Below, piece by piece: positions 9,501-58,720 of a stretch of DNA of 64,000 nucleotides; within the stretch, counting starts at the first letter, position 1, and the number at the start of each line of letters is the position of its first letter. The notes beneath the pieces are model-generated. The model saw only the letters and a program-made list of their open reading frames with translations, searched no databases and had not been told where the DNA came from. The position numbers were made by a program, and so were the translations under genes. The stretch lies in IMG/VR virus record IMGVR_UViG_3300025928_000005, positions 47,342 to 111,341 of that record; one strand, 5' to 3'. The DNA is from a virus.

Positions 9501-10132
9501 AGGAAGAGCGAGAGCGCGTCGAAGACGAACACCTCCTCGAGGAAGGCGTCGATGAACGTGCTCCAGCTGTAGTAGTCCGGGTCGGGGCGCTTGAAGAACT
9601 TCTTGGCCTTGGCGCGGCGCTCACCGAAGTCCTTGAACCAGGCCTTGTCGCCGCGGTTGGCCTTGGCTGCCTCCTGCGTGGGCATGATGTCCCACTCGAG
9701 GCCCCGGATCTCCGACTTGCGGAGCTGGATGCAGGCGCGGGCCACGGAGTACAGGTCGGCGAGGGTGCGCAGCGTGCTGAAGCTGGCGAGCTTGAGGCCC
9801 TCCGAGCCGGGCGTGCCGACCGGGAGGTTCCAGCCGACGCGGTACTCCTCGCGGCGTGGGTCGGCCCGACCGCTCGCGGGGTCGGGCTCATCGACGGGAA
9901 CCGGCAGGATCGGGCTGAACGGCCCGAACGCGCCCTGCGTGAAGGTCGCCGGTGGCCGCGGCAGGAAGCCGGCGTAGGCGTTGGCGTAGCCGTGCTGCTC
10001 CGCGTAGCTGACCACCGCCGGCGACAGGGAGCCGGTGGAGATCCCCGATCCCTGAGGCGCGGGCGTGGGCCGCGCGCCGCCGGGTGAGTAGCGCGCCGCG
10101 CGCAGGATGGATCTAGTCGACGCCACCGGCAA
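6575..10132 (-). CDS. Portal protein fused to Cys-cluster, Nudix and ParB-like domains
   Basis: A protein of 1185 aa. Residues 1-520 match phage portals (YRVGWNLPVGTPG.., LRKSEIRGLEWDIMP, YFREGTVPAVYMSPGD). A Pro/Ala-rich linker leads to a Cys cluster from C859 (CGTCVMF...C...C). A perfect Nudix box follows (G935, E941, R949-E950, E953-E954, G956), and near the C-terminus DGHHRALA (1136-1143) is typical of ParB/Srx-fold domains. The frame opens with TTG at 10132; GTG at 10126 has better spacing to GAGGCGGGGG. Portals normally have 450-600 aa. The frame is open throughout, so this is one polypeptide unless it is cleaved after translation, perhaps by the head protease next door. Confidence 0.85.
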   Translation of the reverse strand: MPVASTRSILRAARYSPGGARPTPAPQGSGISTGSLSPAVVSYAEQHGYANAYAGFLPRPPATFTQGAFGPFSPILPVPVDEPDPASGRADPRREEYRVGWNLPVGTPGSEGLKLASFSTLRTLADLYSVARACIQLRKSEIRGLEWDIMPTQEAAKANRGDKAWFKDFGERRAKAKKFFKRPDPDYYSWSTFIDAFLEEVFVFDALSLFLRPKRGRGMGKGLLGSDLDSLNLISGPTIRPLYDMQGGFPAPPAPAYQQYLYGVPRSDFIKMLTDMDIQDGGLRGSQVAQFRGDQLLYVPMVPRRWTPYGFPPIERAMIPVLSGLQKQGYQLDYFREGTVPAVYMSPGDENMTPNQIRELQDALNAFAGDPAWHHKIIVLPPGTKVEPQRGVQLADAFDEIVMTQVCMAFDIMPMELGIAPKVSTSMSPGASHQMAKMAENVGERKATKPTLMFIADIINNILEYVCGQDDMQFVFEGLEAEEDQSLLTDLLIKQVENGLRSVDEARDELNLQPWGLPETSGPVFLSKNGPVPFGMATAAVPGTVPGATPGSPAPTPPGQLALPGVQPKLPVTAAGTGEIQNTGQGSVPTQPTPSPHVETPGHAAATGAGNAPSRSATGKKPTAAPAKVADAAALEKAASSELEALSRHVKKGRQVSSWVPRNVNPDALARISQHMAEGLEVDDAIRVVKATRRVISLNGQESWIDSRVPQAAAGGGGRSPVRHLGDGTEVPGGVPSSTAGGEPPRWVPSQPPNGYMGGFYDGSDHSQAHHPSGGHDDRVPLTHGHQTDVDVQPPRYPSSGTGGWPQGGVGTGRSSVGEPPGDANDRGRAPNVGDLGKRVKVSKESVHYRPAASRARSCGTCVMFHLDTHSCDLVSGSIDLIDVCDRWEGRTATKGACVAAGLAVRAADTGRVLMLQRGLTDDDPAAGSWEFPGGCLEPGEQPRSAAIREWQEETGCVLPVGRFVPGWGTESGRWLGFVYEVDHETDVPIFDGRDRVTNPDDPDGDQVEALAWWDPTHLVDNPSVRAELRADLQLVLNALSRPASEGTRAATADEVAALMSQNFSDEGYAWVDDATWVGPLNVPTSLIDFSNEPRWAAHHEDAAVDRFEAKLRAGEPTHPAILVDTPGDPKLKVVDGHHRALAAQRLGKPLTAYVGRVPTVVGPWDEAHSFQLNHGDDHLNKTTD

Positions 10133-27211: not shown

Positions 27212-28276
27212 GTGAGCGAGACCACGAGGCCGGCGGGGACGACGCCGTTCTACCTCGCCGCATTGGCCGGCATGGCCGTGTCCCTGAACACCAGCTGGAA
27301 CTTCTTCGGGGACGTGCTGGGCGTCACCGACGTCGACCGCTACACCATGTTCTTCGTGCTGGAGCTCGCCCAGGTCGCCTGCGCCTGGGGCATGCGCGCG
27401 TCGATCCGCCGGCACGTCGACGGCGACCACCGGCCGTCACCGGGCCCGGCGCGCTGGGTCGCCTGGGCCCTCTGCGCCGTCTCCGCCTACATGGCGTGGA
27501 GCCTCAGCGGCTTCTGGGTCGGCGTCGCCCGGGTGCTGATCGGCCCCCTGCTCAGCCTGATCATGCTTCACCTCGCGCTGGGCATCGAGATCCGCGGCCT
27601 TCAGGTGGGCAACGACACCACCCTCGCCCGGGTCGGCCGGGAGCTGCGGGAGCGGCTCCTCTCCCTGCTCGGGCTCGGTGACGAGGAGCGGGACGCCAAG
27701 ACGATGTCACGGCTCCGCGCGGAGCGCCGCGCCTTCAAGATCCGCATGACCGCGAGCGGCAAGCGTCGGCACCGGCGCCGCTTCGTGCAGCAGATCGCGC
27801 GGGCCGGCGTGGCGAACGACCCGGAGGCCCTCGAGCGCTTCAACACCGGGATGATGCTGGCCGCGAACGTGAACAAGCTGTGGGACCAGGAGCGGCCGCT
27901 GCCACCCGAGCTGACGGGTGCCACGGACGACGTGCCAGGTGTCATCGACGCCGAGGTCGTGCCAGATGCCACCACCGAGGTGGCACCAGACAGTGACAGT
28001 GACAGTGACAGTGACAGTGACAGTGACAGTGACAGTGACAGTGACACCGAGGTGGCACCTGACACCAAGAGCGTGACACCCAAGGCGGTGCCGCTGACAT
28101 CCCTCAGCGCCCGGACCCAGGCGGAGGTTGACACCATCCTCGACCTGATGAGCGAGAAGGGTCTGGACGCGGTCACGATCGAGTACATCATGGAGCACGT
28201 TGGCCTGAAGTTCTCCACGGCGGCGCGGCGGCGGCGGGTCGCGGTGGCGCTCTTCGAGGCTCGACAGGTGTCGTGA
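27212..28276 (+). CDS. Multi-pass membrane protein, Spd-like, with Ser-Asp repeat
   Basis: A protein of 354 aa from GTG 27212. About four transmembrane helices (residues 12-35, 48-66, 82-102, 106-128) are followed by a basic cytoplasmic part, an acidic linker with nine Ser-Asp units, and a C-terminal helical region that may be a winged helix. It stands two genes before the TraB/FtsK-like gene, as membrane spread (Spd) proteins accompany TraB on Streptomyces plasmids. That link is inference. Confidence 0.6.
   Translation: MSETTRPAGTTPFYLAALAGMAVSLNTSWNFFGDVLGVTDVDRYTMFFVLELAQVACAWGMRASIRRHVDGDHRPSPGPARWVAWALCAVSAYMAWSLSGFWVGVARVLIGPLLSLIMLHLALGIEIRGLQVGNDTTLARVGRELRERLLSLLGLGDEERDAKTMSRLRAERRAFKIRMTASGKRRHRRRFVQQIARAGVANDPEALERFNTGMMLAANVNKLWDQERPLPPELTGATDDVPGVIDAEVVPDATTEVAPDSDSDSDSDSDSDSDSDSDTEVAPDTKSVTPKAVPLTSLSARTQAEVDTILDLMSEKGLDAVTIEYIMEHVGLKFSTAARRRRVAVALFEARQVS
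27989..28042 (+). repeat. (GACAGT)9 microsatellite
   Basis: Nine exact tandem copies of a hexamer encoding (Ser-Asp)9. The length may vary by slippage without breaking the frame. Confidence 0.95.
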
Positions 28277-28292
28277 CACCCGACACCTGACC

Positions 28293-28331
28293 TGCCACTG
28301 CCACCGGTGCCACGTGCCGGTGGCAGTGGCA
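28293..28331 (+). repeat. 15-bp inverted repeat made of TGCCAC units
   Basis: TGCCACTGCCACCGG, 9-nt spacer, exact complement, in the gap between 28276 and 28410. It may be a terminator, but its arms consist of the same TGCCA/TGGCA words that fill the next gene. Confidence 0.75.
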
Positions 28332-28371
28332 CGTCTGGCACGCGACCCACGTCACGTCCTCATTCATCAGT

Positions 28372-28385
28372 TGATGTGATACAGT
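28372..28385 (+). promoter_or_regulatory. Extended -10 promoter before 28410
   Basis: TGATGTGATACAGT: TACAGT with TGTGA upstream, 24 nt before the start. Confidence 0.45.
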
Positions 28386-28409
28386 GATACCACCGAGGAG
28401 GTGATGACG

Positions 28410-29915
28410 GTGAGCGAGAGGCTCGAGAGCGACGAGGAGCAGGTGTTCGCGTCGGCGGCACCGGTGCCTGAGGAAGGCCTGGTGAGCGGGTCGGAGACGC
28501 CGGAGAAGGAGACCGACCAGGCCTCCAAGGAGGAGGCCCCCAAGGTCCCGACCGGGGGCAAGGCCCGCCAGGCCGCGGGGCGACCGACGTGGCACCTGTC
28601 CCTGACCCTGGGCCTGGTGATCGCCCTAGCCGGCGGGGTGCTCCTGTGGATGCAGTCGCCGGCGCTGGCGCTGCTCGTTGGCGGCGCCCTGGTCGTGCTG
28701 GTGGGGCTCGCCCTCGCCCTGTGGCACCTCTTCGGGTCCGATGCCACCGGCCGTCGAGCTGCCAACCGCCGTGCCAACGACGTGGCAGCCCGTGCCACCG
28801 GGAACCGTGGCAGTGACACCTCACGGCGGCAGGCAGCTGGCAGTGACACCCGCCGAGGTGCCACCTCGCGTGACACCGGTGGCACCTCACGTGCCACCCG
28901 TGCCAACCGCCGTGGCACGCGAGACGGTGACACCGATCCGCGAGGTGCCACTCGCCGCCGGCGACGTGGCACCGATGACACCCGTGACCCGGCACCGCGT
29001 GGCAGGCGACGGGATCGTGCCACCGAGCCCCGTGGCACGGGTGGCACGCCGCGTGACCGAGGCGGTCAGCCACGGCAGCCGCGTGCCACGCCGCCCGGCG
29101 GCGGGCGACCGCAGCAGCCGCGCGGCGTCAAGGACCCGACCGGTGGCCGGCAGCCGGCACCGAACGCGGAGCGAAACCCGTACCGCAACCGAAACCGCAA
29201 CCCGTACTGGAACCGCGACCGTGACCGACCCGGCTTCTGGCGTGAGCGCACCTGCGTCAATGGCGGCCGCCCACCGATCACCAAGGTGCCGAAGGCTGAG
29301 GACGCCGCGGCCGACGAGGGAAAGAGGCCGGTGAGGTTGAAGCCACTTCGCTGGCGAAGCCGTCGAGGGAAGCTGCCGGTCCCGCAGGAGCCGAGGCCGG
29401 CTCGAGCCAAGGTGACCAAGCCGCCGCGGGAGCCGAGGCGTCCCAACGAGACCAGCGTGGAGTGGCCGAACGTGGATCAGGACCACTACGAGCCGGTGAT
29501 CGCGAGCAAGCTGCCGCGCATCACCCACGCGAGGCGAGCGGTCAAGCTGCCGCCCATCTACCACCGCAAGGGTGAGCCCCAGTGGCCCACCGACGACGAG
29601 GACCAGCGGGGACCCACCGTCCCCCCGCAGCGAGACAGGAGAGGCACCGTGGTAACCCCTGATCAGATGACCCGGGCCGACTGGGAGGCCCACTGCAGCC
29701 GGGCGGCCAACCTGGCTACCAAGGCGGCTCAGGCGAAGGACGAGCTGGCCACGAGGGCCCTCCAGGAGGCTCAGCTCCTGGACGGCATGGATGACCCGGA
29801 GATGCGGGAGGCGCAGGCCAACCACCTCCACGCGGCCTCCCGGGCGGCCCTCGACGGCGAGGTTCGCCGTCACAAGGCCGCGATCTGGAGCTCCCTGGGC
29901 CAGAATCCCGTGTAG
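28410..29915 (+). CDS. Membrane-anchored disordered Arg/Gly/Thr-rich protein
   Basis: A protein of 501 aa from GTG 28410, 8 nt after GGAGG. An acidic start is followed by two hydrophobic helices (about 65-110), then roughly 130 residues of Arg/Gly/Thr/Asp low complexity encoded by TGCCA/TGGCA/TGACA words, a Pro/Arg-rich section, and a helical end (TRADWEAHCSRAANLATKAAQAKDEL). A second start at 29649 (GTG behind GGAGAGG) could give the last 88 residues as a separate product. It lies directly upstream of the translocase gene, so it may be its membrane or DNA-binding partner. Confidence 0.6.
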   Translation: MSERLESDEEQVFASAAPVPEEGLVSGSETPEKETDQASKEEAPKVPTGGKARQAAGRPTWHLSLTLGLVIALAGGVLLWMQSPALALLVGGALVVLVGLALALWHLFGSDATGRRAANRRANDVAARATGNRGSDTSRRQAAGSDTRRGATSRDTGGTSRATRANRRGTRDGDTDPRGATRRRRRGTDDTRDPAPRGRRRDRATEPRGTGGTPRDRGGQPRQPRATPPGGGRPQQPRGVKDPTGGRQPAPNAERNPYRNRNRNPYWNRDRDRPGFWRERTCVNGGRPPITKVPKAEDAAADEGKRPVRLKPLRWRSRRGKLPVPQEPRPARAKVTKPPREPRRPNETSVEWPNVDQDHYEPVIASKLPRITHARRAVKLPPIYHRKGEPQWPTDDEDQRGPTVPPQRDRRGTVVTPDQMTRADWEAHCSRAANLATKAAQAKDELATRALQEAQLLDGMDDPEMREAQANHLHAASRAALDGEVRRHKAAIWSSLGQNPV

Positions 29916-29933
29916 GATTGAGGCGAGCGGCAT

Positions 29934-29966
29934 CTCGACCCCCGACCGGAATGGTCGGGGGTCGAG
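29934..29966 (+). terminator. 14-bp hairpin before the translocase gene
   Basis: CTCGACCCCCGACC, GGAAT loop, exact complement. It separates the membrane protein gene from the FtsK-like gene. Confidence 0.7.
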
Positions 29967-29992
29967 GTCGCTCTACGGAAAGAGGAAAAAAG

Positions 29993-32170
29993 ATGACCAC
30001 GATTCCCCACAAGGTGTTCCTTCCCGCGGTGGGTGCCCTGCTGACCCTCTCACTGGGCATCACCCTGATCCTGTCCGAACTACCGTCGTGGCTCACGGTT
30101 CTGATCACGATCGCCGCGACGGGCGTCACGGTTCTGATTTCGGAGCAGCTCGTGCTCAGCGCGTGGTGCCTCGCGGACCTGACCGTGGACGGCAAGGGGA
30201 TCGCGGTTCGTCTGGTGGCGCTCGCGGTGGTGAGCGACGGCTCGCTCGCGGTGTTTCTCGAGGTAGCGGGCCTGAGCGCGCTGCCTCTCGCCCTGCTCGG
30301 TCAGCTCGCGCTGGCCGTCTCTCAGGTCCTCGTGGCCGTGGTCGCTGACGCGTACCTGTTCCGGATGCGGCCCCGGCTGAGGCGCGTGGCCTGGGAGAGG
30401 CAGCAGCACGCCGCGAGGCAGCGACAGCAGCAAGTTGAGGTGAGGAAGGGTCGGGAGAGGGCCGACGCGCTCGTGAGGGCCGACCCCGCGACGGTGACCA
30501 CCACCGAGAGCCACGACGTTCGGATCATGCGAGAGGCCCTCAAGCGCGTCAAGCTCGACTGGGTTGAGATCCGGGGTGAGCCCACGCGCCTGAGCGATGA
30601 CCGCGGGCTCTTCGGCATTCGCTTTGAGGTTCAAATCACCTCAACGGCGATGCTGAACAAGAACCAGCGCACGCTTTCCGTGGACAGCGCGGAGCCGATC
30701 GCGGTGGCTCTCTCGGAGCTCCTGAACCAGCGGCTGCACCGGAAGTGGGTGGCCATTCAGCGCCTCGAGCACGCCGGCGGCTACACGATCACGGTGACCA
30801 CGCAGGACGTCATGAAGCGGGTCTACCAGTTTCAGGACACGCTCGAGTGGGGGGACATCGAGGTTCCAGCTCGGGTGGGCTTTGGGTTGGATGCGCGGCC
30901 CATTTACCTAAAGCTTCGGCAGCACGGCCAGTTCCTGGGAAAGACCCGAGCCGGCAAGTCCTCGCTGATCAACTGCACGATCGCCTACGGCACCCGCTGC
31001 CGCAACGTCGTGTATTGGATCTGCGGCGTGAAGAAGCTGTACGACATCCTCGCCGGCTGGCTCGAGATCTACCTCGACACCGAGTTCGACATGCCCTTCG
31101 ACTGGGTCATGGCGGGCCCGGCGGACACCGCGGAGATGCTGGCCGCCCTGGAGCGCGTGTCGCGGTACCGCCAGTCCCTACGCAACCACGAGCGGCAGAA
31201 CCTGCCGGACATCATCCTCGTCCTGGATGAGGCCAGCTACGCCCTGCGCGACACCTCGGTGACGGGCGAGGTGGACGGCCTCGACCTGACCATGTCGGCC
31301 CTGTGCGGCATGATCACCCAGGGCGCGGGGTCGGCGAACTGCTGGCTGCACTACGCCACGCAGCGCGACACCAACGACCAGCTCGGCAGCGTCGGCGGCG
31401 ACATCCAGGCGCAGGTCGGGTTCACGGCCATGTTCGGCACGCAGGACAACCTCTCGCTCGGTCGGCAGCTCGGTGACTTCAAGCTGCCGCCGCCCACCCA
31501 CAAGGGCGAGTACTACCTGAAGAACGACGACGCGGAGGAGACCTACCCGGTCCTGGTGAAGTCGGAGTACATCCAGGAGGATGACCCCAGCAAGCCCGTC
31601 CTGCACGACGGGCTCAAGCTCAGCGAGGTGTCTTGGTCGCGGCGGAACTTCAAGACCCGCCTCGACGAGGGGTCGCAGCGCGCCGCCGGCGAGGTGTACC
31701 TGCGGCGGCCGACCCGGGTCACGGAGCGGTTCATCGACTACCTGCGAAACCCGCGGGGCGTCTCGATGCCCCTCAGCGGCCTCAGCTACGGGGCCGGGAC
31801 GGCCACCGAGGTCGACCCGGACGAGGCCGCGAGGGACCTCGCGAGGCACCAGGGGCTCGACTTCGATGACCTGCCGCCGGCGCAGAGGGAGGCCTACCGG
31901 GAGGTCGCGCGGGAGCTCCACGAGGACGTTCCGGCGCCGTCGGACGAGCCCAGCGCGCCGGTCAGTGGCAACCTCACGGAGCAGGTCACGTGGGTCCTGC
32001 GCCGCGCCGGCCGCCCCCTGGCGATGCGGGACCTCCTCGACGCGATGCGGACCGCTGGGCTGGAGGTCCGCAGCGAGGGGTCGGTGCGCAACCTGCTCGG
32101 GAAGCTCGTGGAGGACGGGGTCCTCACCCGAGGCGCGGACCGCCTCTACGAGCTTCCCGACGGTAACTGA
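29993..32170 (+). CDS. TraB/FtsK-type DNA translocase
   Basis: A protein of 725 aa from ATG 29993 with AGAGGAAAAA upstream. Four hydrophobic segments in the first 130 residues anchor it in the membrane. The motor has Walker A at 316-323 (GKTRAGKS) and Walker B DIILVLDE (406-413), then WLHYATQRDTN and GDIQAQVGF as in FtsK/SpoIIIE/TraB motors. The last 75 residues form a winged helix (EQVTWVLRRAGRPLAMRDLLDAMRTAG), as the FtsK gamma domain and TraB use to read DNA sequence. Such proteins move double-stranded DNA between mycelial compartments or cells. Finding one in a phage suggests a phage-plasmid or a DNA-transfer step. Confidence 0.82.
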   Translation: MTTIPHKVFLPAVGALLTLSLGITLILSELPSWLTVLITIAATGVTVLISEQLVLSAWCLADLTVDGKGIAVRLVALAVVSDGSLAVFLEVAGLSALPLALLGQLALAVSQVLVAVVADAYLFRMRPRLRRVAWERQQHAARQRQQQVEVRKGRERADALVRADPATVTTTESHDVRIMREALKRVKLDWVEIRGEPTRLSDDRGLFGIRFEVQITSTAMLNKNQRTLSVDSAEPIAVALSELLNQRLHRKWVAIQRLEHAGGYTITVTTQDVMKRVYQFQDTLEWGDIEVPARVGFGLDARPIYLKLRQHGQFLGKTRAGKSSLINCTIAYGTRCRNVVYWICGVKKLYDILAGWLEIYLDTEFDMPFDWVMAGPADTAEMLAALERVSRYRQSLRNHERQNLPDIILVLDEASYALRDTSVTGEVDGLDLTMSALCGMITQGAGSANCWLHYATQRDTNDQLGSVGGDIQAQVGFTAMFGTQDNLSLGRQLGDFKLPPPTHKGEYYLKNDDAEETYPVLVKSEYIQEDDPSKPVLHDGLKLSEVSWSRRNFKTRLDEGSQRAAGEVYLRRPTRVTERFIDYLRNPRGVSMPLSGLSYGAGTATEVDPDEAARDLARHQGLDFDDLPPAQREAYREVARELHEDVPAPSDEPSAPVSGNLTEQVTWVLRRAGRPLAMRDLLDAMRTAGLEVRSEGSVRNLLGKLVEDGVLTRGADRLYELPDGN

Positions 32171-49649: not shown

Positions 49650-49678
49650 ACCCTACCACATCGCCCTGCGTTTGTAAA
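49650..49678 (-). promoter_or_regulatory. Repeated-family promoter
   Basis: TTTACA, 17-bp spacer, TAGGGT; drives 49625. Confidence 0.75.
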
Positions 49679-49755
49679 CCCTGCACAGCCAGGTTCCCTG
49701 CCGGATCCTGGCGGCCAGCTGGCTGGGCCAGCCTGTGGCCCAGCCAGTTCCAGCC

Positions 49756-50112
49756 TCAGAGGCCGAGGATCCGCGAGGTGCGCGGGTCCAGGCCCAGCTC
49801 GTCGAGCACGTGGCTCGCCTTGGCACAGGTGATCTCGCCCTCGCGCTCCCAGCCCGCGATGAGCAGCGAGTAGCCCCTGCCCTTGGCGACCAGCGTGCCC
49901 TTGAACGCGTCCCCCAGCCACAGCTCCCAGCCCTTGCCGACCCGCTTGGCGACCAGGTCCACCGCGTCGTAGGCGCGCTCGAAGCTGGCCGTGAGGACGC
50001 GCGTGCGGTGGCCCGCCGCGTCCAGCAGCTCGGTCCAGGCACCCTCGGCGCCGACGCGGAAGAACAGCTCACCGGTGTAGTGGTCGGCGTAGCGGGGGTG
50101 GCTGGCGGTCAT
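49756..50112 (-). CDS. Hypothetical protein
   Basis: A protein of 118 aa with AGGAGG before ATG 50112. YTGELFFRVGAEGAWTELLDA..., WELWLGDAFKGTLVAKGRG; beta-rich. No family. Confidence 0.65.
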   Translation of the reverse strand: MTASHPRYADHYTGELFFRVGAEGAWTELLDAAGHRTRVLTASFERAYDAVDLVAKRVGKGWELWLGDAFKGTLVAKGRGYSLLIAGWEREGEITCAKASHVLDELGLDPRTSRILGL

Positions 50113-50152
50113 GGCTTCCTCCTGCGGTTCCGGGTTCCTGCGTTCTGGGTCA

Positions 50153-50181
50153 ATCATACACCAGCGGCGGGAGTTTGTAAA
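50153..50181 (-). promoter_or_regulatory. Repeated-family promoter
   Basis: TTTACA, 17-bp spacer, TATGAT; drives 50112. Confidence 0.8.
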
Positions 50182-50200
50182 CCCCCGCCGCGAACCGGTG

Positions 50201-50452
50201 TCAGCGAACGTGCTCCCGCAGCCACGCCTCGCCGCTCTCCCGGGCCCACGCCACGAAGTCCGAGGCGCTCATGTGGCAGAACGTGACGTGGTCCGCCAGC
50301 TCGCTCATCACGCGGTCGCCCCAGCGCCGCACGCCCTCCTCGTTCACCTTCTGCGCGCGCACGTCGTCGGCGGGGTCGAGCCCCAGGGCCTCCTGCTTCT
50401 CGCCGCAGAGGGCGATGAGGATGAGCAGCTGGCGGTCGGTGAGGCGTCGCAT
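50201..50452 (-). CDS. Small helical protein
   Basis: A protein of 83 aa; charged helices, one Cys-His pair (FCHMS). Monocistronic. Confidence 0.65.
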   Translation of the reverse strand: MRRLTDRQLLILIALCGEKQEALGLDPADDVRAQKVNEEGVRRWGDRVMSELADHVTFCHMSASDFVAWARESGEAWLREHVR

Positions 50453-50493
50453 CGGTCGGTCTCCGTTTCCTCGGTTCCTGCGTTGGTAGGACC

Positions 50494-50522
50494 AGCTTAC
50501 CAGAGCCCAGGGGTTTTGTAAA
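50494..50522 (-). promoter_or_regulatory. Repeated-family promoter
   Basis: TTTACA, 17-bp spacer, TAAGCT; drives 50452. Confidence 0.8.
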
Positions 50523-50541
50523 CCCCTGGGCTCCGGTCAGC

Positions 50542-50895
50542 TCAGCCGCGCGACTTCTCCACCCACGCCAGGGTCTCGTCGAGCCGCCTCGTGAAGTCCA
50601 CGAGCTCCTTGATGGCCGCCTTGCGGGTGCGCTCGAAGCCTCGACCCAGGCGACGGAAGCGGTCGCGGTCGGCGATCGAGTCGAGCCGCCGCACGCTGTC
50701 GTGCAGGTTGGCCGCCTCGAACCGCCAGCCCTGCTCCACGCGCTGACCCACGCTGTAGTTGCCGTCCTTGGCCATGACGTGGTGGGTCCGCTCGTCCTTG
50801 TAGACGTGCCCCAGCAGCCGCTGGCCGTCGAGGACGGCCTGCTTGAAGATGCCGTCGCGGTAGGCGCGCTTGTCGGTCTTCTGGATCGTGATCAC
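50542..50895 (-). CDS. Hypothetical protein
   Basis: A protein of 117 aa, GTG start; beta-rich first half, helical Arg-rich second half. Monocistronic. Confidence 0.65.
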   Translation of the reverse strand: MITIQKTDKRAYRDGIFKQAVLDGQRLLGHVYKDERTHHVMAKDGNYSVGQRVEQGWRFEAANLHDSVRRLDSIADRDRFRRLGRGFERTRKAAIKELVDFTRRLDETLAWVEKSRG

Positions 50896-50934
50896 GGCTT
50901 CCTCGTTTTCTCTCGTTCCTGCCTGCTGGTACCT

Positions 50935-50963
50935 ACCTTACCACGGCGCGGCGAGGTTGTAAA
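50935..50963 (-). promoter_or_regulatory. Repeated-family promoter
   Basis: TTTACA, 17-bp spacer, TAAGGT; drives 50895. Confidence 0.8.
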
Positions 50964-51005
50964 CCCCTGGGGCTCACGACCTCGCCCACCGTGGCGAGGT
51001 GGGGC

Positions 51006-51296
51006 TCAGCCCTGGCGGCGGATCGTGTAGCGCACGCCGCCGGCCTCGGCCAGCACGAACTCGCCGTGCGCCGCCGGCTCCTCGACCTCCGAGAGCTGCC
51101 GAGCCAGCTCGAGGCTCCGCTCGCGCACCTCGTCGCTCCCCGAGCCCAGGGCGTCCCTCACGACGTGGTTGACCAGCCGCACGCGCTGCTGCTCGAACGT
51201 GTCCCGCGGCGGGAAGTCGACCCAGCCCATCGCGGCGTGGAAGTCGTCGTCCGGGTTGGCGATCGAGCGGGTGGCGTAGAAGCGGGTCTCGGTCAT
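51006..51296 (-). CDS. Hypothetical protein
   Basis: A protein of 96 aa; FYATRSIANPDDDFHAAMGWVDFPP then helices. Monocistronic. Confidence 0.65.
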   Translation of the reverse strand: MTETRFYATRSIANPDDDFHAAMGWVDFPPRDTFEQQRVRLVNHVVRDALGSGSDEVRERSLELARQLSEVEEPAAHGEFVLAEAGGVRYTIRRQG

Positions 51297-51332
51297 GGCT
51301 TCCTCGTTTCCTCGTTCCTGCGTTCTGGGTCA

Positions 51333-51361
51333 ATCATACACCACGCGGGTGCGTTTGTAAA
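51333..51361 (-). promoter_or_regulatory. Repeated-family promoter
   Basis: TTTACA, 17-bp spacer, TATGAT; drives 51296. Confidence 0.8.
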
Positions 51362-51370
51362 CCCCTGATC

Positions 51371-51577
51371 TCAGCGCGGCGCGCGCTTGGCGACCACCGT
51401 GAGCCCCCGCGGGTCGAGCGTCACCACGCCCGCGTCGGTGTCCAGCTCGAGCACCGCGCGCCCCCAGCGCCGCAGCCGCCCGCTCGCCACCACGTCCAGC
51501 TCGCGGTCCACCACGGCCACGGGCAGCCCCAGCGCGGCCGCCCGCCGGTGCACGATGACCAGGTCCCTCGCGCTCAT
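51371..51577 (-). CDS. Small hypothetical protein
   Basis: A protein of 68 aa from ATG 51577; strand-rich (LVIVHRRAAALGLPVAVVDRELDVVASG). Confidence 0.6.
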   Translation of the reverse strand: MSARDLVIVHRRAAALGLPVAVVDRELDVVASGRLRRWGRAVLELDTDAGVVTLDPRGLTVVAKRAPR

Positions 51578-51613
51578 CGGGTCCTCCGTTCCTCGTTCCT
51601 GCGTCCTGGTCCA

Positions 51614-51642
51614 ATCATACACCGGCGGCGGCCGTTTGTAAA
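51614..51642 (-). promoter_or_regulatory. Repeated-family promoter
   Basis: TTTACA, 17-bp spacer, TATGAT; drives 51577. Confidence 0.8.
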
Positions 51643-51645
51643 CCC

Positions 51646-51936
51646 CTATCGGGGACCCGTTCCCAGGTGGCTTCGCAGCTCGTGCGTGCCGTGGTACCAC
51701 GCGCTCACCAGCAGCTCCGCGGCAGCGGAGCTGAGCGTGACCACCAGGTAGCCGTACCACGCCCCGCTCTCGTCGTCCCCCGCCTCGACGAAGAAGACGC
51801 GCCGCTCGTCCACCCGCACGTTCGTGAGGTCCACCCTGCCGCGCAGCTGCCGCAGCTCGCCGTCGAGCACGCCGCGCGGCGTGGCCGGCCCCTCGTCCAT
51901 CTGCGCGTCCAGCCAGATCGTGACCCGCTCGCCCAC
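51646..51936 (-). CDS. Hypothetical protein
   Basis: A protein of 96 aa from GTG 51936 with GAGAGG upstream; beta-rich middle (VRVDERRVFFVEAGDDESGAWYGYL). Confidence 0.6.
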   Translation of the reverse strand: MGERVTIWLDAQMDEGPATPRGVLDGELRQLRGRVDLTNVRVDERRVFFVEAGDDESGAWYGYLVVTLSSAAAELLVSAWYHGTHELRSHLGTGPR

Positions 51937-51965
51937 TTGCCTCTCCGTTCCTCGTTCCTGAGACC

Positions 51966-51994
51966 ATCTTACCACGTCCGGCGCGAGATGTAAA
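51966..51994 (-). promoter_or_regulatory. Repeated-family promoter
   Basis: TTTACA, 17-bp spacer, TAAGAT; drives 51936. Confidence 0.8.
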
Positions 51995-52022
51995 CACCTC
52001 GCGCCCGACGAGGCGAGCCCTC

Positions 52023-52328
52023 TCAGGCTGTGGCGTGGTGCTCGGCCAGGCGCCCCAGCCGGGTGCGCGGGCCGTCCTCGATCCCACACGCCTCCTCGAA
52101 CGAGTCGATCACGACCGTGACCTGCCGCGCCTCAGCCAGGGTGTACAGCAGCCGCAGGCTGTCCTCGTCGCCCCGGAACTGGAACGAGTTCTCCTCGTCC
52201 AGCCAGTACTCCACGTCGCCGTGCGCGGGCAGCAGGCGCTGCGTGGCGCAGATCAGGCTGTACGCCTTGCCGTCGGCCTCGTCGGCGTCCCGGCCGCTGA
52301 CGTCGAGCACCATCGTGAGCGTCTTCAT
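52023..52328 (-). CDS. Hypothetical protein
   Basis: A protein of 101 aa from ATG 52328; LTMVLDVSGRDADEADGKAYSLICATQRL then YWLDEENSFQFRGDEDSLRLLYTLAEA; ferredoxin-like strand-helix order. Confidence 0.6.
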   Translation of the reverse strand: MKTLTMVLDVSGRDADEADGKAYSLICATQRLLPAHGDVEYWLDEENSFQFRGDEDSLRLLYTLAEARQVTVVIDSFEEACGIEDGPRTRLGRLAEHHATA

Positions 52329-52367
52329 GGGGGCCTTCTTCCTGGTTCCTGACTGGCTGATAGGTAA

Positions 52368-52396
52368 ATCATACACCAGGTGAGGGGGTTTGTAAA
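52368..52396 (-). promoter_or_regulatory. Repeated-family promoter
   Basis: TTTACA, 17-bp spacer, TATGAT; drives 52328. Confidence 0.8.
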
Positions 52397-52416
52397 CCCC
52401 CTCGCCCAAGATCTTT

Positions 52417-52680
52417 TCAGGCGCCGATCCGGACGCGCGCCTCACGGCGCGAGGACGCGAAGCTCTCGTAGGGGCTGTCGCCGCGCACGACGGCGTACGA
52501 GACGTCGCGGTGCCCCGGCTTGCCGTACTTGCGCTCGAACACGACGCGGATCACGGCGCCCCGCTCGGTGACCCGATCGACCGTCCAGGAGTTGATCAGC
52601 ATCGTGCCCTCGGTCGAGCTCACGCCGTCGTCGCCCTGACGCGTGACCCGGCCGTTGCGGTGGATCTTGATCTCGCTCAC
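52417..52680 (-). CDS. Small basic protein
   Basis: A protein of 87 aa from GTG 52680 with GGAGG; EIKIHRNGRVTRQGDDG, then strands and an Arg-rich end. Confidence 0.6.
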   Translation of the reverse strand: MSEIKIHRNGRVTRQGDDGVSSTEGTMLINSWTVDRVTERGAVIRVVFERKYGKPGHRDVSYAVVRGDSPYESFASSRREARVRIGA

Positions 52681-52717
52681 GCCGTCCTCCGGTTCCTCGT
52701 TCCTGCGTTCTGAGACA

Positions 52718-52746
52718 ATCATACACCAGGTGAGGGAATTTGTAAA
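52718..52746 (-). promoter_or_regulatory. Repeated-family promoter
   Basis: TTTACA, 17-bp spacer, TATGAT; drives 52680. Confidence 0.8.
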
Positions 52747-52766
52747 CCCCCTCACCCAGGTTTTTC

Positions 52767-53021
52767 TCAGCCGCGCGCCGCCTCGTACGAGGCGCGAGCG
52801 TCCGCCTCGCGGAGGTACGCCACCGGCGCGGCGACGTGCGTCAGCAGCAGCCACGCGCCGCTCAGGCGCAGCAGCGTGGCCCGCGGGCTGGCGTCGGCCA
52901 GCTCCGCCTGCACCCACGTCCCCGGCGCGTCCACCCACTCGACGGCGAACGTGGTGGCCCCCAGCTGGCGCACGGCGCACGGCCGCACGCACAGCCAGGT
53001 GAAGCCGTCCGGGCGCCTCAC
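52767..53021 (-). CDS. Small hypothetical protein
   Basis: A protein of 84 aa; GTG overlaps the stop of 53018 (GTGA). Beta-rich. Confidence 0.6.
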   Translation of the reverse strand: MRRPDGFTWLCVRPCAVRQLGATTFAVEWVDAPGTWVQAELADASPRATLLRLSGAWLLLTHVAAPVAYLREADARASYEAARG

Positions 53022-53245
53022 AGCGCCGTCTCTCGCCCGTCCACGACGACGCGGATCTGCGCGACCTTGTTGAGGGCGCGCGCCGCGCGCCGCAGGTTGT
53101 CGGCGACCCTCAGAACCCCCTCGGCGTGCGCCTGGCCGCCCGCCGGGCACTCGGCCTTGTGCAGGGTCACCCAGCCCGCGAACGCGCCCATCGACTCCGC
53201 GCGCACCCGCAGCTGGACCTCGTACGTCTCCATCTTCACGTCCAC
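53018..53245 (-). CDS. Small hypothetical protein
   Basis: A protein of 75 aa, GTG start; METYEVQLRVRAESM then a helical ALNKVAQ segment. Confidence 0.6.
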   Translation of the reverse strand: MDVKMETYEVQLRVRAESMGAFAGWVTLHKAECPAGGQAHAEGVLRVADNLRRAARALNKVAQIRVVVDGRETAL

Positions 53246-53277
53246 TCCCGGTTCCTCGTTCCTGCTGTCCTGCGTTC

Positions 53278-53306
53278 AGCTTACCACGTCCTCGGACGTT
53301 TGTAAA
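53278..53306 (-). promoter_or_regulatory. Repeated-family promoter
   Basis: TTTACA, 17-bp spacer, TAAGCT; drives 53245 and 53021. Confidence 0.8.
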
Positions 53307-53309
53307 CCC

Positions 53310-53501
53310 CTACGCGCAGATCGTCTCGATCTCGTCGAACGCGTCGTCGGTCGACGTGTACGACGTGACCCCGCGCGCCCTGAGCGCCGCGCGCAGCTCC
53401 TCGTACGTCTCGCACGCCTCGAGCGCGACGTAGGCGTCGCACGCGACCCACGGCCGCGCGCTGCCGCGGATGAAGTCGACCTTGACCTGGCTCCGGCCCA
53501 C
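53310..53501 (-). CDS. Small acidic protein
   Basis: A protein of 63 aa, GTG start; ends DDAFDEIETICA. Monocistronic. Confidence 0.6.
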   Translation of the reverse strand: MGRSQVKVDFIRGSARPWVACDAYVALEACETYEELRAALRARGVTSYTSTDDAFDEIETICA

Positions 53502-53537
53502 CGGTTCCTCCTCGCTCGTTCCTGCTGTCCTGCGTCC

Positions 53538-53566
53538 AGCTTACCAGCTGCGGCTCAGTTTGTAAA
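53538..53566 (-). promoter_or_regulatory. Repeated-family promoter
   Basis: TTTACA, 17-bp spacer, TAAGCT; drives 53501. Confidence 0.8.
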
Positions 53567-53574
53567 CCCCTGGC

Positions 53575-53829
53575 TCACCCGAGCCCGCGCAGCACCTCGA
53601 CGCCCACGCGCAGCGGCAGCCCGAGCAGATGCCACGCGCCGTGGCGGCGGTGCCGCCGCCCGTGCCCCCGACGGTGGCGCGTGCCACGCGCTCGCGGCGC
53701 GGGTGCCACCGGCTGCCACGCGGCGGCCGGCAGCCACACCCAGCCCAGCTGCGGGTGCCACGCCCAGCTGCCAGGTGGCACCTGGGGTGCCGCGCCCGAG
53801 GGGCGCGGCACCCCGCGCCGCTCAGCCAC
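53575..53829 (-). CDS. Small Pro/Trp/Arg-rich protein
   Basis: A protein of 84 aa, GTG overlapping the previous stop by 8 bp. The gene is rich in TGCCAC/GTGGCA words like the 28.3-29.1 kb stretch. Low complexity, so coding status is less sure. Confidence 0.45.
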   Translation of the reverse strand: MAERRGVPRPSGAAPQVPPGSWAWHPQLGWVWLPAAAWQPVAPAPRARGTRHRRGHGRRHRRHGAWHLLGLPLRVGVEVLRGLG

Positions 53830-54103
53830 GCCGGACGTCGCCCTGCGTGGCGGGCCGCCCGTGCCGCGCCTGGAACTCCACCGCGTCGATGCCGGCCGCG
53901 TCGCACTCGTCCTGCGAGAGGACGGCCTCGACGCTCACTCCCGAGCCGAACTCGCGGTAGCCCTCGTCGCCGCGCGCGCCCAGCCACAGCTGCAGCACGC
54001 TCGCGCCCCAGCCCTTGAGCACGCCCTCGAACTGCCCGCCCGTGGCGCGGTCCGTGACGACGACGTGCTGGCCGCGGTAGGCGTTCCTGCGCGCGAGGCT
54101 CAT
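53822..54103 (-). CDS. Small hypothetical protein
   Basis: A protein of 93 aa. QHVVVTDRATGGQFEGVLKGWGASVLQLWLGARGDEG looks like an Sm/KOW-type small barrel. Confidence 0.6.
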   Translation of the reverse strand: MSLARRNAYRGQHVVVTDRATGGQFEGVLKGWGASVLQLWLGARGDEGYREFGSGVSVEAVLSQDECDAAGIDAVEFQARHGRPATQGDVRRG

Positions 54104-54146
54104 GTCCTGCTCCTAGCTTCCTGGTTCCTGACTGCCTGACCTGATA

Positions 54147-54175
54147 ACTGTATGCCGGAATCCCACGTTTGTAAA
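54147..54175 (-). promoter_or_regulatory. Repeated-family promoter
   Basis: TTTACA, 17-bp spacer, TACAGT; drives 54103. Confidence 0.8.
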
Positions 54176-55285: not shown

Positions 55286-55708
55286 TCAGGGTTCCAGCCC
55301 GGCCCGACGGCGCGTCGCGGTCACGTCCCTCGACCGGACGCCGATCCCGGCGTTGGGGTGACCCGGCCCATCCGGCTTGACGGGGTAGCCCGCGGCGAGG
55401 CACGCCAGGATGAGCTCACCGTTGGTCACGTACTCGCCCGTCGCCCGCTCGTAGACGTGCTTCAGCCCGTAGCTGCCGTGTCGGCCGGCTCCCCTCGTTG
55501 CCTCGAGGTTGTCCAGCAGCCAGCGGGCGACCCGCACCGCCCGGCTGAGGTTCCGCTCCAGGTCGGCCCGGTCCCTCGCGTGGCTGGCTCCGCTCGCTCG
55601 ACCGGGAGCCTCGAGCGTCCCGTAGCCGTGCGCCGTGAGGCTCGGGTCCGCGGCGAGCGCTCGCCGCGCCGCCTGAGCCAGCTGTCGGTCGTCAACGTTC
55701 CTCGTCAC
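55286..55708 (-). CDS. Hypothetical protein beside the origin
   Basis: A protein of 140 aa, GTG start 6 nt from a TAGGGT box, so probably leaderless. Helical; KHVYERATGEYVTNGELILACLAAGYPVKPDGPGHPN looks conserved in style. No family recognised. Confidence 0.65.
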   Translation of the reverse strand: MTRNVDDRQLAQAARRALAADPSLTAHGYGTLEAPGRASGASHARDRADLERNLSRAVRVARWLLDNLEATRGAGRHGSYGLKHVYERATGEYVTNGELILACLAAGYPVKPDGPGHPNAGIGVRSRDVTATRRRAGLEP

Positions 55709-55720: not shown

Positions 55721-55740
55721 TCATCAACGTTGCTGTTCTT

Positions 55741-56095
55741 GGACTCCTGAACTTTTGGACTTTTCGCTCTATATGAGCGATTACGGCGGAACGGTTACAT
55801 ACGGTAACCACTTGGATACCCTATCTACCATCTCTTCCTTACCCAACCTACAGTTACTTTGAGCTCTATAAGTCCAAAAGTCCTACCTACCTACCTAGAA
55901 GACCTGGTAGAGGCCCTGTGACCCGGTTGGACTTACCGCTGGACTTCCCCTGGACTTTCCACCACGAGCCCCTCGAGGCGAGAAAGTCCACGCCCCACCC
56001 CGCCACCGCTGTGGTGACGGCTCCCGGGACGTGGACTTTCCACCGCCTCACCCCCTCGCGGAAGTCCAGCCCTCGACGACCTCCTTGAGAAGTCC
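55741..56095. other. Candidate replication origin with GGACTT iterons
   Basis: Ten copies of GGACTT in both orientations (55757, 55870, 55878, 55929, 55941, 55952, 55984, 56033, 56062, 56090), most as TGGACTT, plus a GGACTC at 55741. The left half (55740-55890) is strikingly AT-rich and holds a GGTTAC/GTAACC inverted repeat and a CTAC microsatellite. The primase-helicase gene ends inside the repeats. Nothing else is encoded in 55709-56047. Confidence 0.7.
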
Positions 56096-58720
56096 AGAGG
56101 CCCCGGGCAGCAGCCGCAGGCCCGTGAACGCCTCCAGCCGCGCCTTGCCGTTGCCGTCGACGCGGTCCCGCCGCCCCACCCCCGGCAGCTCCTCCACGCG
56201 CTTGTAGAACGCGTTGCGGCCGATCCCGTAGCGGCGGTTCTCGTTGGGGTGCTGGTCCGTGAACCAGTCGTTGAAGCTGTCCCACAGCGTCTTGGGCCTC
56301 ACCTCGTTCTCGACCGTCCCCGTCACCTCCACGAGGTCCGCCACGAACTGCGCCACCAGGTCCAGGTTGTCGTCCTGGTACGTTCGCAGCGCGGCCAGCA
56401 TCTCGTCCGTGAGGATCAGGCCGGTCGGCGCGCCCGGCTCCCGCCGCGCCACCCACCACTCCCGCCACCACCGCACCAGGTGCGCCAGCACCGCGTCCCC
56501 CTCCGCCAGGGCGGCGCGCTTCACGTCGAACTGCTCCGCCTTCGGCACCGGCACCGTCGACAGGGGGAACAGCGCGAGCCGGTTCACCACCTGCGGGGTC
56601 AGGTTCGCCCGCGGCAGCTCGTTCGTGCTGCACGTCAGCTTCCACGTCACCGCCACGTCGATGCGGTCCTGCCGCATCCGCCGCAGCGACACCACCGACC
56701 CCTCCGGGTTGACGAACCGCAGCACCTGCCCCTCGTCCAGGATCTGGCTCGCCGTCATCTCGTTCACCAGGGTCAGCCGGGTCCCGGCCAGCTGGTACTC
56801 CTCCGCGTCGTGCCGGTCCCCCTTCGTCCTCACCAGCAGGGTCGGCCGCCCCGCGAGCCACGCCAGGCCCGGCCCCAGCAGCTCCCCCACCACCTCCAGG
56901 ATCTGGTTCTTGCCGATGTCGCTCGCGCCCTCGAACACGCCCAGCTTCTTCTCCGGGTTGGAGCCGTGTAGCTGGTATCCGAGCCACCGGCCCACCGCCG
57001 CCACGCGCTCCGCGTGCACCGCCTCACTCACCTCTCCCGGGGCCGCGCACAGGCGATGCAGGAGCCCCCAGAAGCGCGGCGCGACCTCCGCGAGGGGGCG
57101 CTCAGCCAGCGAGAGATCCAGGTCCCGCTCCACGCGCTGCGACAGGCGGTCCGCCTGACGGTGCTCCCGCAGCTCACCCGTCGTGACGTCGAAGGTGCCG
57201 TTGCGGAAGCTCAGCAGCGCGGGCCGCGCGTTGAAGTCGCGCTGCGACACCCGCGTCGCCTTCGGCAGCGCCGCGCTCACCACGGCGGTGATTCCCGCGG
57301 TGTTGCGGAACGGGTGGTAGGTCGCGCGGATCCGCTCCACCCGGGCCCGGTCCTGCGCCTCCGCGGTGCCGCTCACCACCGCCAGGTACGCGGGGCTCTC
57401 CCGCAGCTCCCGCACCATCACGTCGTGGCAGCGCCGCGCGACGCGGTCCACCAGCGCCCACACGAGCTCGTGCTTCCCACCGTCCCACCGCCACACGCCC
57501 TCGGCCTCGCTGAACACCGCGAACCGTCCCACCTCGGGGTCCCAACCCACCCGGGAGCCGAACACGTCCAGGACGAGCTCCGCCATGCCCACCTGGTCCG
57601 GGCGATACGGGCCGTCGTCCTCCAGGTGGCTGAACGCGACCTCCTCGAGCGAGTTGGGCCGGCCCACGTCCCGCGACGGGGCCACGGCCACCGGCTCGGG
57701 CTCGGGCTCAGCCGCCGGCTCAGCGCTCACCGCGACCACCGCGCCGTTCACCGCCTCGAGCGCCGCCACCGCCACGGGCTGCGTCGGCGGCACCGGGGGC
57801 GCGCTCACGCTCGTCACGACGGCGTCGGGCGTCACCTCGAGGCCGTGGTTCACCCCATTCATCGCCTCGCAGTACGCCCAGTGCCGCTCGAAGACGTCCC
57901 GGTTGTCCTCCGACCAGCCCCACTCCGGGATGCTGAGCGTCAGCTTGTTCTGCGCGTGATCCAGCCACAGCGCCCACGCGGCTTCCTTCTCGTAGCCGGC
58001 GCGCACCAGTGAGCCCGTGTAGCTGAACAGCTGCGGCTCGTTTCCCTCACCCGCGGTCGCCGTGCCCTGCGCCACCGCGCTCCAGTGGTCGTCGCGGTCG
58101 GCCTCGATCGCGTCAAGCAGCTCGTCGGTCGCGATGATGATCTCGCCGTCCGCGGGCTCGTAGAGCTCACCCGAGTAGTGGACGCAGCCCGGCAGGGGCA
58201 CGAAGCCCATCGACTTCACGTCCCAGCCACCGCGTGGCCCCTGCTTGGGCCAGCGGTGCATCAGCTCCTCGGGCACGTACACGTAGGCGTGCCAGCCGCC
58301 GCCCCGCCGCGCGCACACCGCGTGAGCCTCGGTCACGAGCTCCGCCGTGTTGGATGCCGCGTATTGCTCGCGGTCGTCGACGTCGACCGCGAACAGGCGC
58401 GTCGACGGCGCGCACACCACCGCGACCTGGTGACCGTCGCCCTGCGGGCCGTGCTGGTCGTGGGTCTCGAGCAGCGCGTTCGCGCACCTTCCCGCGTAGT
58501 GTCCCGGGCTGGGGTAGATCGCGCCGTACTGAGCGTTGCTGAACCAGTTCTTGCCACCGTGCGAGAGGTGCTTCGACCACTCCTCTACCTCCACGCGCTG
58601 GCCGCCCACCACCCGCGTGAGCCGCATCAGCGCGTTGTGCCACCGGGCCAGCGTGAAGAAGAACTCGGTGCCGTCGCTCAGCACCGTGAGGCGGTCGTTA
58701 GCCCGAACCTCGGTCGGCAT
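56048..58720 (-). CDS. PrimPol-SF3 helicase replication protein
   Basis: A protein of 890 aa from ATG 58720 with GGGAG at 9 nt; a longer frame adds 33 unlikely residues. The N-terminus is a PrimPol-type domain with catalytic D113 and D115 in FAVDVDD and HAYVYVP. A Pro/Ala/Glu linker near 330-370 leads to a D5_N-like region and an SF3 helicase with Walker A G598-ASDIG-K604-N605 and RLTLVNEM. SF3 loops normally end GKS/GKT, so Asn at 605 is odd. The C-terminus (RRYGIGRNAFYKRVEELPGVG) is a winged-helix-like unit. It should open the adjacent iteron origin and prime it. Confidence 0.88.
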   Translation of the reverse strand: MPTEVRANDRLTVLSDGTEFFFTLARWHNALMRLTRVVGGQRVEVEEWSKHLSHGGKNWFSNAQYGAIYPSPGHYAGRCANALLETHDQHGPQGDGHQVAVVCAPSTRLFAVDVDDREQYAASNTAELVTEAHAVCARRGGGWHAYVYVPEELMHRWPKQGPRGGWDVKSMGFVPLPGCVHYSGELYEPADGEIIIATDELLDAIEADRDDHWSAVAQGTATAGEGNEPQLFSYTGSLVRAGYEKEAAWALWLDHAQNKLTLSIPEWGWSEDNRDVFERHWAYCEAMNGVNHGLEVTPDAVVTSVSAPPVPPTQPVAVAALEAVNGAVVAVSAEPAAEPEPEPVAVAPSRDVGRPNSLEEVAFSHLEDDGPYRPDQVGMAELVLDVFGSRVGWDPEVGRFAVFSEAEGVWRWDGGKHELVWALVDRVARRCHDVMVRELRESPAYLAVVSGTAEAQDRARVERIRATYHPFRNTAGITAVVSAALPKATRVSQRDFNARPALLSFRNGTFDVTTGELREHRQADRLSQRVERDLDLSLAERPLAEVAPRFWGLLHRLCAAPGEVSEAVHAERVAAVGRWLGYQLHGSNPEKKLGVFEGASDIGKNQILEVVGELLGPGLAWLAGRPTLLVRTKGDRHDAEEYQLAGTRLTLVNEMTASQILDEGQVLRFVNPEGSVVSLRRMRQDRIDVAVTWKLTCSTNELPRANLTPQVVNRLALFPLSTVPVPKAEQFDVKRAALAEGDAVLAHLVRWWREWWVARREPGAPTGLILTDEMLAALRTYQDDNLDLVAQFVADLVEVTGTVENEVRPKTLWDSFNDWFTDQHPNENRRYGIGRNAFYKRVEELPGVGRRDRVDGNGKARLEAFTGLRLLPGASGLLKEVVEGWTSARG

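What the first reader, a model, noticed from the sequence alone, without database searches (positions are those of the whole stretch)
55741..56095. Iteron origin overlapping the end of the primase gene
Ten GGACTT units within 340 bp, in both orientations, next to an AT-rich stretch and a PrimPol-SF3 gene form a classic plasmid-like origin. The last copies lie inside the coding 3' end, so repeats constrain the protein's C-terminus.
Basis: partly seen in the sequence, partly recalled or inferred. Interest (0 to 1): 0.75.

Follow-up and report, generated by a model that had tools for sequence, protein, structure and literature searches.

The report
Phage replication origin beside its initiator
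A cluster of short DNA repeats around an easily melted stretch, just after a phage's helicase-primase gene, is very probably where this roughly 111-kb phage starts copying its DNA; the layout is known from phage satellites, but its repeats and their changes among relatives are newly described here.

Summary
Ten GGACTT units lie in 55757-56095 in both orientations. Nine of the sixteen TGGACTT copies in the whole 111,341-base virus contig fall in 341 bp; 60 dinucleotide shuffles never gave more than three GGACTT in 345 bp. The AT-rich stretch between them (55804-55903) is the least stable 100 bp of the contig. The neighbouring minus-strand gene (56048-58720) encodes a D5-type helicase-primase ending in a predicted winged-helix domain. 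Decisive is the comparison. In five other viral loci carrying a relative of this helicase (42-52% identical), the strongest repeat cluster and the least stable DNA also sit at the 3' end of the helicase gene. There the repeat differs (GGTCTTT, TGTGGGG, GCGACAGTT) and the downstream gene usually differs. All share one core: a tandem pair, an AT-rich stretch, then an inverted tandem pair. This is the rep-ori layout described for SaPI/PICI satellites: Rep binds iterons flanking a melting site just downstream of its own gene. I conclude it is an initiator-bound replication origin of that known kind, a new member. The in-gene copies lie in the protein's low-confidence tail. GC skew does not help. 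Function is inferred, not shown.

The parts
55740..56096 (.). Iteron array: nine TGGACTT + one AGGACTT + one degenerate TGGACTC, both orientations
55756..55762 (+). Iteron TGGACTT flanking the AT-rich stretch on the side away from the helicase gene; with degenerate TGGACTC at 55740-55746 it forms the distal pair (16-17 bp apart)
   Evidence: same 16-17 bp spacing in L002, L015, L023
55763..55869 (.). AT-rich stretch between the two iteron pairs, proposed DNA unwinding element; least stable 100 bp of the whole contig is 55804-55903
55870..55884 (-). Proximal iteron pair (TGGACTT 55870-55876 and AGGACTT 55878-55884, 8 bp apart)
55928..56038 (.). Third cluster between AT-rich core and gene end: TGGACTT at 55928, 55940, 55951, 56032 (+) and 55984 (-)
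56062..56096 (-). Two iterons inside the 3' end of the helicase CDS (56062-56068, 56090-56096), encoding the non-conserved tail (about residues 875-887)
56048..58720 (-). D5-type SF3 helicase-primase (890 aa), proposed initiator that binds the array
56111..56359 (-). C-terminal winged-helix domain (residues about 788-870), proposed iteron reader
55286..55708 (-). Downstream 140-aa gene of unknown function; a different gene lies here in most relatives

Best explanation
This is the replication origin of a large tailed phage, built as a rep-ori module. The D5-type helicase-primase encoded at 56048-58720 reads the TGGACTT units through its C-terminal winged-helix domain. Two tandem pairs of units face each other across a 107-bp AT-rich stretch. 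Copies of the initiator assemble on each side, probably as two hexamers, melt the AT-rich stretch and load as 3'-to-5' helicases. Primers are then made by the N-terminal PrimPol region, and forks are extended by the phage's own family A DNA polymerase and/or host enzymes. The extra cluster running into the gene's 3' end probably loads or titrates more initiator. Shown here: the array, its statistics, its position, the unstable core, the helicase family, the predicted winged helix and the conservation of the layout with a changing motif. Inferred: binding, melting, priming and origin activity.
For: Cluster far beyond chance. Least stable DNA of the contig lies inside it. In L002, L015, L023, L017/L018/L027 and L022, all D5-helicase relatives (42-52% identity), the strongest repeat cluster of the locus lies between about -90 and +420 bp of the helicase stop codon, and the least stable 100 bp begins at +84 to +257. 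Repeat sequence changes with the protein: GGACTT, GGTCTT, TGTGGGG, GCGACAGTT. The core 'tandem pair, AT-rich 67-114 bp, inverted tandem pair' is kept, with 8-9 and 16-17 bp pair spacings in the four GGWCTT loci. Downstream genes mostly differ, so the array travels with the helicase. The C-terminal domain is predicted as a winged helix (pLDDT 84-92) and best matches the RFX5 winged helix and ASFV PrimPol, another PrimPol-helicase protein. [quoted passage not shown] SaPI Rep reads iterons directly downstream of its gene by its C-terminal domain, and SCC Cch2 does the same in vitro (PMC7581432). The contig encodes DNA_pol_A.
Against: No binding, melting or replication data. GC skew does not change sign at the array. 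Two relatives with fused PrimPol-D5 proteins (L003, L019; 34% identity) have no comparable array within the 6-10 kb searched on either side, so the module is not universal in the family. Own N-terminal region has no Pfam Prim-Pol match. The full-length structure model was poor (pLDDT 53.8). Phages this large often use several origins or recombination-driven replication (general knowledge).
Confidence: 0.83

Rival explanations
1. Operator array for a transcription regulator controlling the downstream 140-aa gene and neighbouring minus-strand early genes; the AT-rich stretch is the promoter region.
For: The array lies upstream of the start of the gene 55286-55708; AT-rich DNA and repeats fit operators; phages have multi-site operators (general knowledge).
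Against: In relatives the array stays with the helicase while the downstream gene is different: RecD-like in L002, zinc-finger-like in L015/L023, a possible ribbon-helix-helix protein in L017 (read from sequence). The small minus-strand genes use another, unrelated repeated promoter-like unit. Ten copies in both orientations, some inside the upstream CDS, would be excessive for one promoter.
Confidence: 0.07
2. Helicase binding site used for something other than starting replication, e.g. copy-number control, autoregulation or a secondary origin, with the main origin elsewhere.
For: GC skew has no inflection here. Another dense palindromic cluster (GTGNCAC, 25 copies at 27918-29083) lies beside an FtsK-like gene.
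Against: The GTGNCAC cluster is GC-rich and largely in coding DNA. The skew pattern follows gene blocks and third-codon-position usage. Only the GGACTT array contains the contig's least stable DNA.
Confidence: 0.07
3. Partition (centromere) site of a plasmid-like prophage.
For: Clusters of short repeats in mixed orientation can be centromeres (general knowledge).
Against: No ParA (AAA_31) match in the contig and no tyrosine integrase; association is with the helicase gene in all array-bearing relatives found.
Confidence: 0.02
4. Chance or low-complexity repeats without function.
For: The unit is only 7 bp long.
Against: Shuffles never approach the density, and position and architecture recur in related loci.
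Confidence: 0.01

Closest known systems
SaPI / PICI rep-ori (Rep helicase with iteron origin)
   Same: Origin directly downstream of the initiator helicase gene; two sets of short iterons flanking an AT-rich melting site; C-terminal domain reads the iterons (PMC6092414, PMC7581432).
   Different: Here in a roughly 111-kb phage, not a small satellite; the iteron sequence is different; an additional cluster reaches into the initiator CDS.
Phage P4 alpha protein and its origin
   Same: Primase-SF3 helicase with C-terminal winged helix binding origin repeats (as described in PMC4234260).
   Different: P4 alpha has a Toprim-type primase; repeat sequence differs; P4 needs a second cis site (general knowledge), none found here.
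SCCmec Cch2 and its downstream direct repeats
   Same: Helicase binds iterons just after its own gene through its C-terminal domain (PMC7581432).
   Different: Only three AAGTG iterons; priming by a separate polymerase pair.
pRN1 ORF904 origin
   Same: PrimPol-SF3-winged-helix protein with its origin just downstream of the gene (PMC4234260).
   Different: pRN1 uses a long stem-loop, not iterons.
D5-helicase genes of Gordonia phage GMA4, Mycobacterium phage TM4 and a Streptomyces xanthophaeus plasmid
   Same: Also have repeat clusters and unstable DNA at or downstream of the 3' end of the D5 gene.
   Different: Helicases only about 25-27% identical; unrelated repeat units.

Membership tests
SaPI/PICI-type rep-ori module | Initiator is a D5/SF3 helicase with primase region | tested here: met
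   D5_N 1.9e-13; phrog_1156 DNA primase 1.9e-50; conserved GxxxxGK and other helicase motifs
SaPI/PICI-type rep-ori module | Iterons directly downstream of the initiator gene | tested here: met
SaPI/PICI-type rep-ori module | Two iteron sets flanking an AT-rich melting site | tested here: met
SaPI/PICI-type rep-ori module | C-terminal DNA-binding domain of the initiator | tested here: met
   Predicted winged helix, pLDDT 84-92; Foldseek matches to winged helices, E 0.004-0.03; prediction only
SaPI/PICI-type rep-ori module | Specific binding of iterons by the initiator | not testable with these tools
   Needs gel shift or footprinting
SaPI/PICI-type rep-ori module | Autonomous replication of rep plus ori | not testable with these tools
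   Needs cloning in a host, which is unknown
SaPI/PICI element itself | Small satellite that hijacks a helper phage | tested here: not met
   111-kb contig with terminase, portal and DNA polymerase genes: a phage, not a satellite
pRN1-type origin | Long stem-loop downstream of the PrimPol-helicase gene | tested here: not met
   Inverted pairs in the region are dispersed iteron arms of 12-19 nt, 29-127 nt apart; no long hairpin
AEP PrimPol (PF09250) domain in this protein | Pfam Prim-Pol match | tested here: inconclusive
   No match in own N-terminus; matched in L002, L003, L017, L019; the DxD motif aligns

The most novel reading that the evidence does not exclude
The arrays form a natural series in which the iteron sequence changes together with the winged helix of the initiator (GGACTT, GGTCTT, TGTGGGG, GCGACAGTT) while the geometry stays fixed. 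In the GGWCTT branch, extra units lie within the initiator's own coding end in all four loci, suggesting a conserved, undescribed third binding cluster that couples initiator gene and origin, for loading or copy control.
Probability: 0.4. Interest if true: 0.5.

Novelty: new member of a known kind. Interest (0 to 1): 0.38.

Why it matters
It gives a testable origin for a group of uncultured phages of up to about 111 kb and ties them to the replication logic known from phage satellites. The related arrays offer a natural experiment on how a D5 helicase's winged helix chooses its origin: the geometry is constant and only the 7-8 bp unit varies. It also gives a simple marker (strongest repeat cluster plus least stable DNA at the 3' end of a D5 gene) for annotating phage origins.

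Tried and rejected
GC skew as an origin test: no inflection at the array; switches at contig 24 kb and 96 kb follow gene blocks and third-position codon usage. GTDB genome contigs: no relative found. Near matches in phage records: none. PDB sequence search with the family profile: none. Full-length fold: too poor to use. Chance, partition site and operator readings were considered and ranked low. L003/L019 and several Arthrobacter/Microbacterium/Curtobacterium phages with distant D5 proteins show no array at the gene end, so the layout is common but not universal.

Full report
What is there. The window is bases 47342-111341 of a 111,341-base IMG/VR virus contig. Terminase, portal and DNA polymerase A genes make it a tailed phage. 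Ten GGACTT units occur in 55757-56095, five on each strand, nine of them as TGGACTT. The whole contig has 16 TGGACTT, nine of them here. In 60 dinucleotide-preserving shuffles of the contig no 345-bp stretch held more than three GGACTT, and no 7-mer cluster of any sequence came near the real one (log10p -9.0 at best, against -21.7).

The core. Read in the direction of the helicase gene, units run -47, -19 (inside the CDS), +10, +59, +91, +102, +114, then a tandem pair at +165/+173, then about 107 bp of AT-rich DNA, then an inverted unit at +286 and a degenerate one about 17 bp further. The least stable 100 bp of the entire contig, by nearest-neighbour energies, is window 55804-55903 (z 5.1; next 3.7).

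The neighbour. The minus-strand gene 56048-58720 encodes 890 aa with D5_N and a near full-length match to phage primases (phrog_1156, residues 92-871). Its own N-terminus gives no Pfam Prim-Pol match, but relatives do, either fused (L003, L017, L019) or as the adjacent ORF (L002). The C-terminal 152 residues fold in prediction as a winged helix with pLDDT 84-92 for most of it. The tail encoded by the in-gene repeats is below 50. Foldseek ranks the RFX5 winged helix first and an ASFV PrimPol chain next (E 0.004 and 0.03, so a lead rather than proof).

Comparison with relatives. Scans of viral contigs gave relatives at 34-52% identity. In L002 (GGTCTTTT), L015 and L023 (TGGTCTT), L017/L018/L027 (TGTGGGG) and L022 (GCGACAGTT) the strongest repeat cluster of the locus sits at the helicase gene's 3' end. 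The least stable 100 bp of each tested locus begins +84 to +257 after the stop codon. All have a tandem pair, 67-114 bp of AT-rich DNA and an inverted pair. In the four GGWCTT loci the pair spacings are 8-9 and 16-17 bp. L015 and L023 are 90% identical in the helicase, and L017/L018/L027 are one group, so these are five protein lineages including this one. The gene downstream of the array differs between lineages, which ties the array to the helicase and not to the next gene. In-gene units occur in all four GGWCTT loci and in neither of the other two types.

Limits of the pattern. L003 and L019, with fused PrimPol-D5 proteins 34% identical, lack an array and have their least stable DNA elsewhere. 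More distant D5 genes give mixed results: TM4, GMA4 and a Streptomyces plasmid show repeat clusters near the gene end, while several Arthrobacter, Microbacterium and Curtobacterium phages do not.

Mechanism. The published precedent is close. [quoted passage not shown] P4 alpha binds origin repeats by a winged helix (PMC4234260). By analogy the protein here binds TGGACTT units on both sides of the AT-rich stretch, melts it, loads as helicase and primes. Binding and replication are inferred.

The repeats, AT-rich stretch, gene and origin reading stand. The model should be satellite-phage rep-ori rather than a classic plasmid origin. The coding overlap touches only a non-conserved tail. GC skew, one of the proposed checks, is not informative: its sign does not change at the array, and coding-strand third-position skew differs between late-type and early-type gene blocks.

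Verdict. A well-supported origin, a new member of a known kind, with a useful comparative series.

Noticed in passing
window 27918-29083: The interrupted palindrome GTGNCAC occurs 25 times in 1.2 kb (63 in the whole contig; control palindromes 0-2 here), in several reading frames, directly upstream of an FtsK/SpoIIIE-like gene (29918-32170; phrog_1358). It could be a recognition-site cluster for that translocase, like clt/KOPS sites.
   Followed up: partly
window 27989-28046: Perfect hexanucleotide tandem repeat GACAGT, 9.7 copies, inside a plus-strand ORF.
   Followed up: no
window 49672-54175 and 62575, minus strand: At least twelve near-identical promoter-like units (GGGGTTTACAAAC, about 16 bp, TGGTAAGCT or GTGTATGAT, then CAGGAACGAGGAACC) upstream of small orphan genes, recalling repeated start-associated promoters of some actinobacteriophages.
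   Followed up: partly
contig ends (G000:C1:1-57 and last 57 bases): The two contig ends share a 57-bp direct repeat at 95% identity, so the genome may be nearly complete and terminally redundant or circular.
   Followed up: no
window 6575-10132, minus strand: An ORF of 1185 aa joins a portal protein with a NUDIX hydrolase domain and a weak ParB-like C-terminal match.
   Followed up: no
contig-wide: Structural-gene blocks on both strands have strongly C-biased third codon positions (coding-strand skew -0.22 to -0.27) while early-type blocks do not; this sets the cumulative GC skew of the contig.
   Followed up: partly
P0001 residues 598-606 and relatives: Walker A of this clade reads GxxxxGKN instead of the usual GKS/T in all relatives that cover it.
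   Followed up: no
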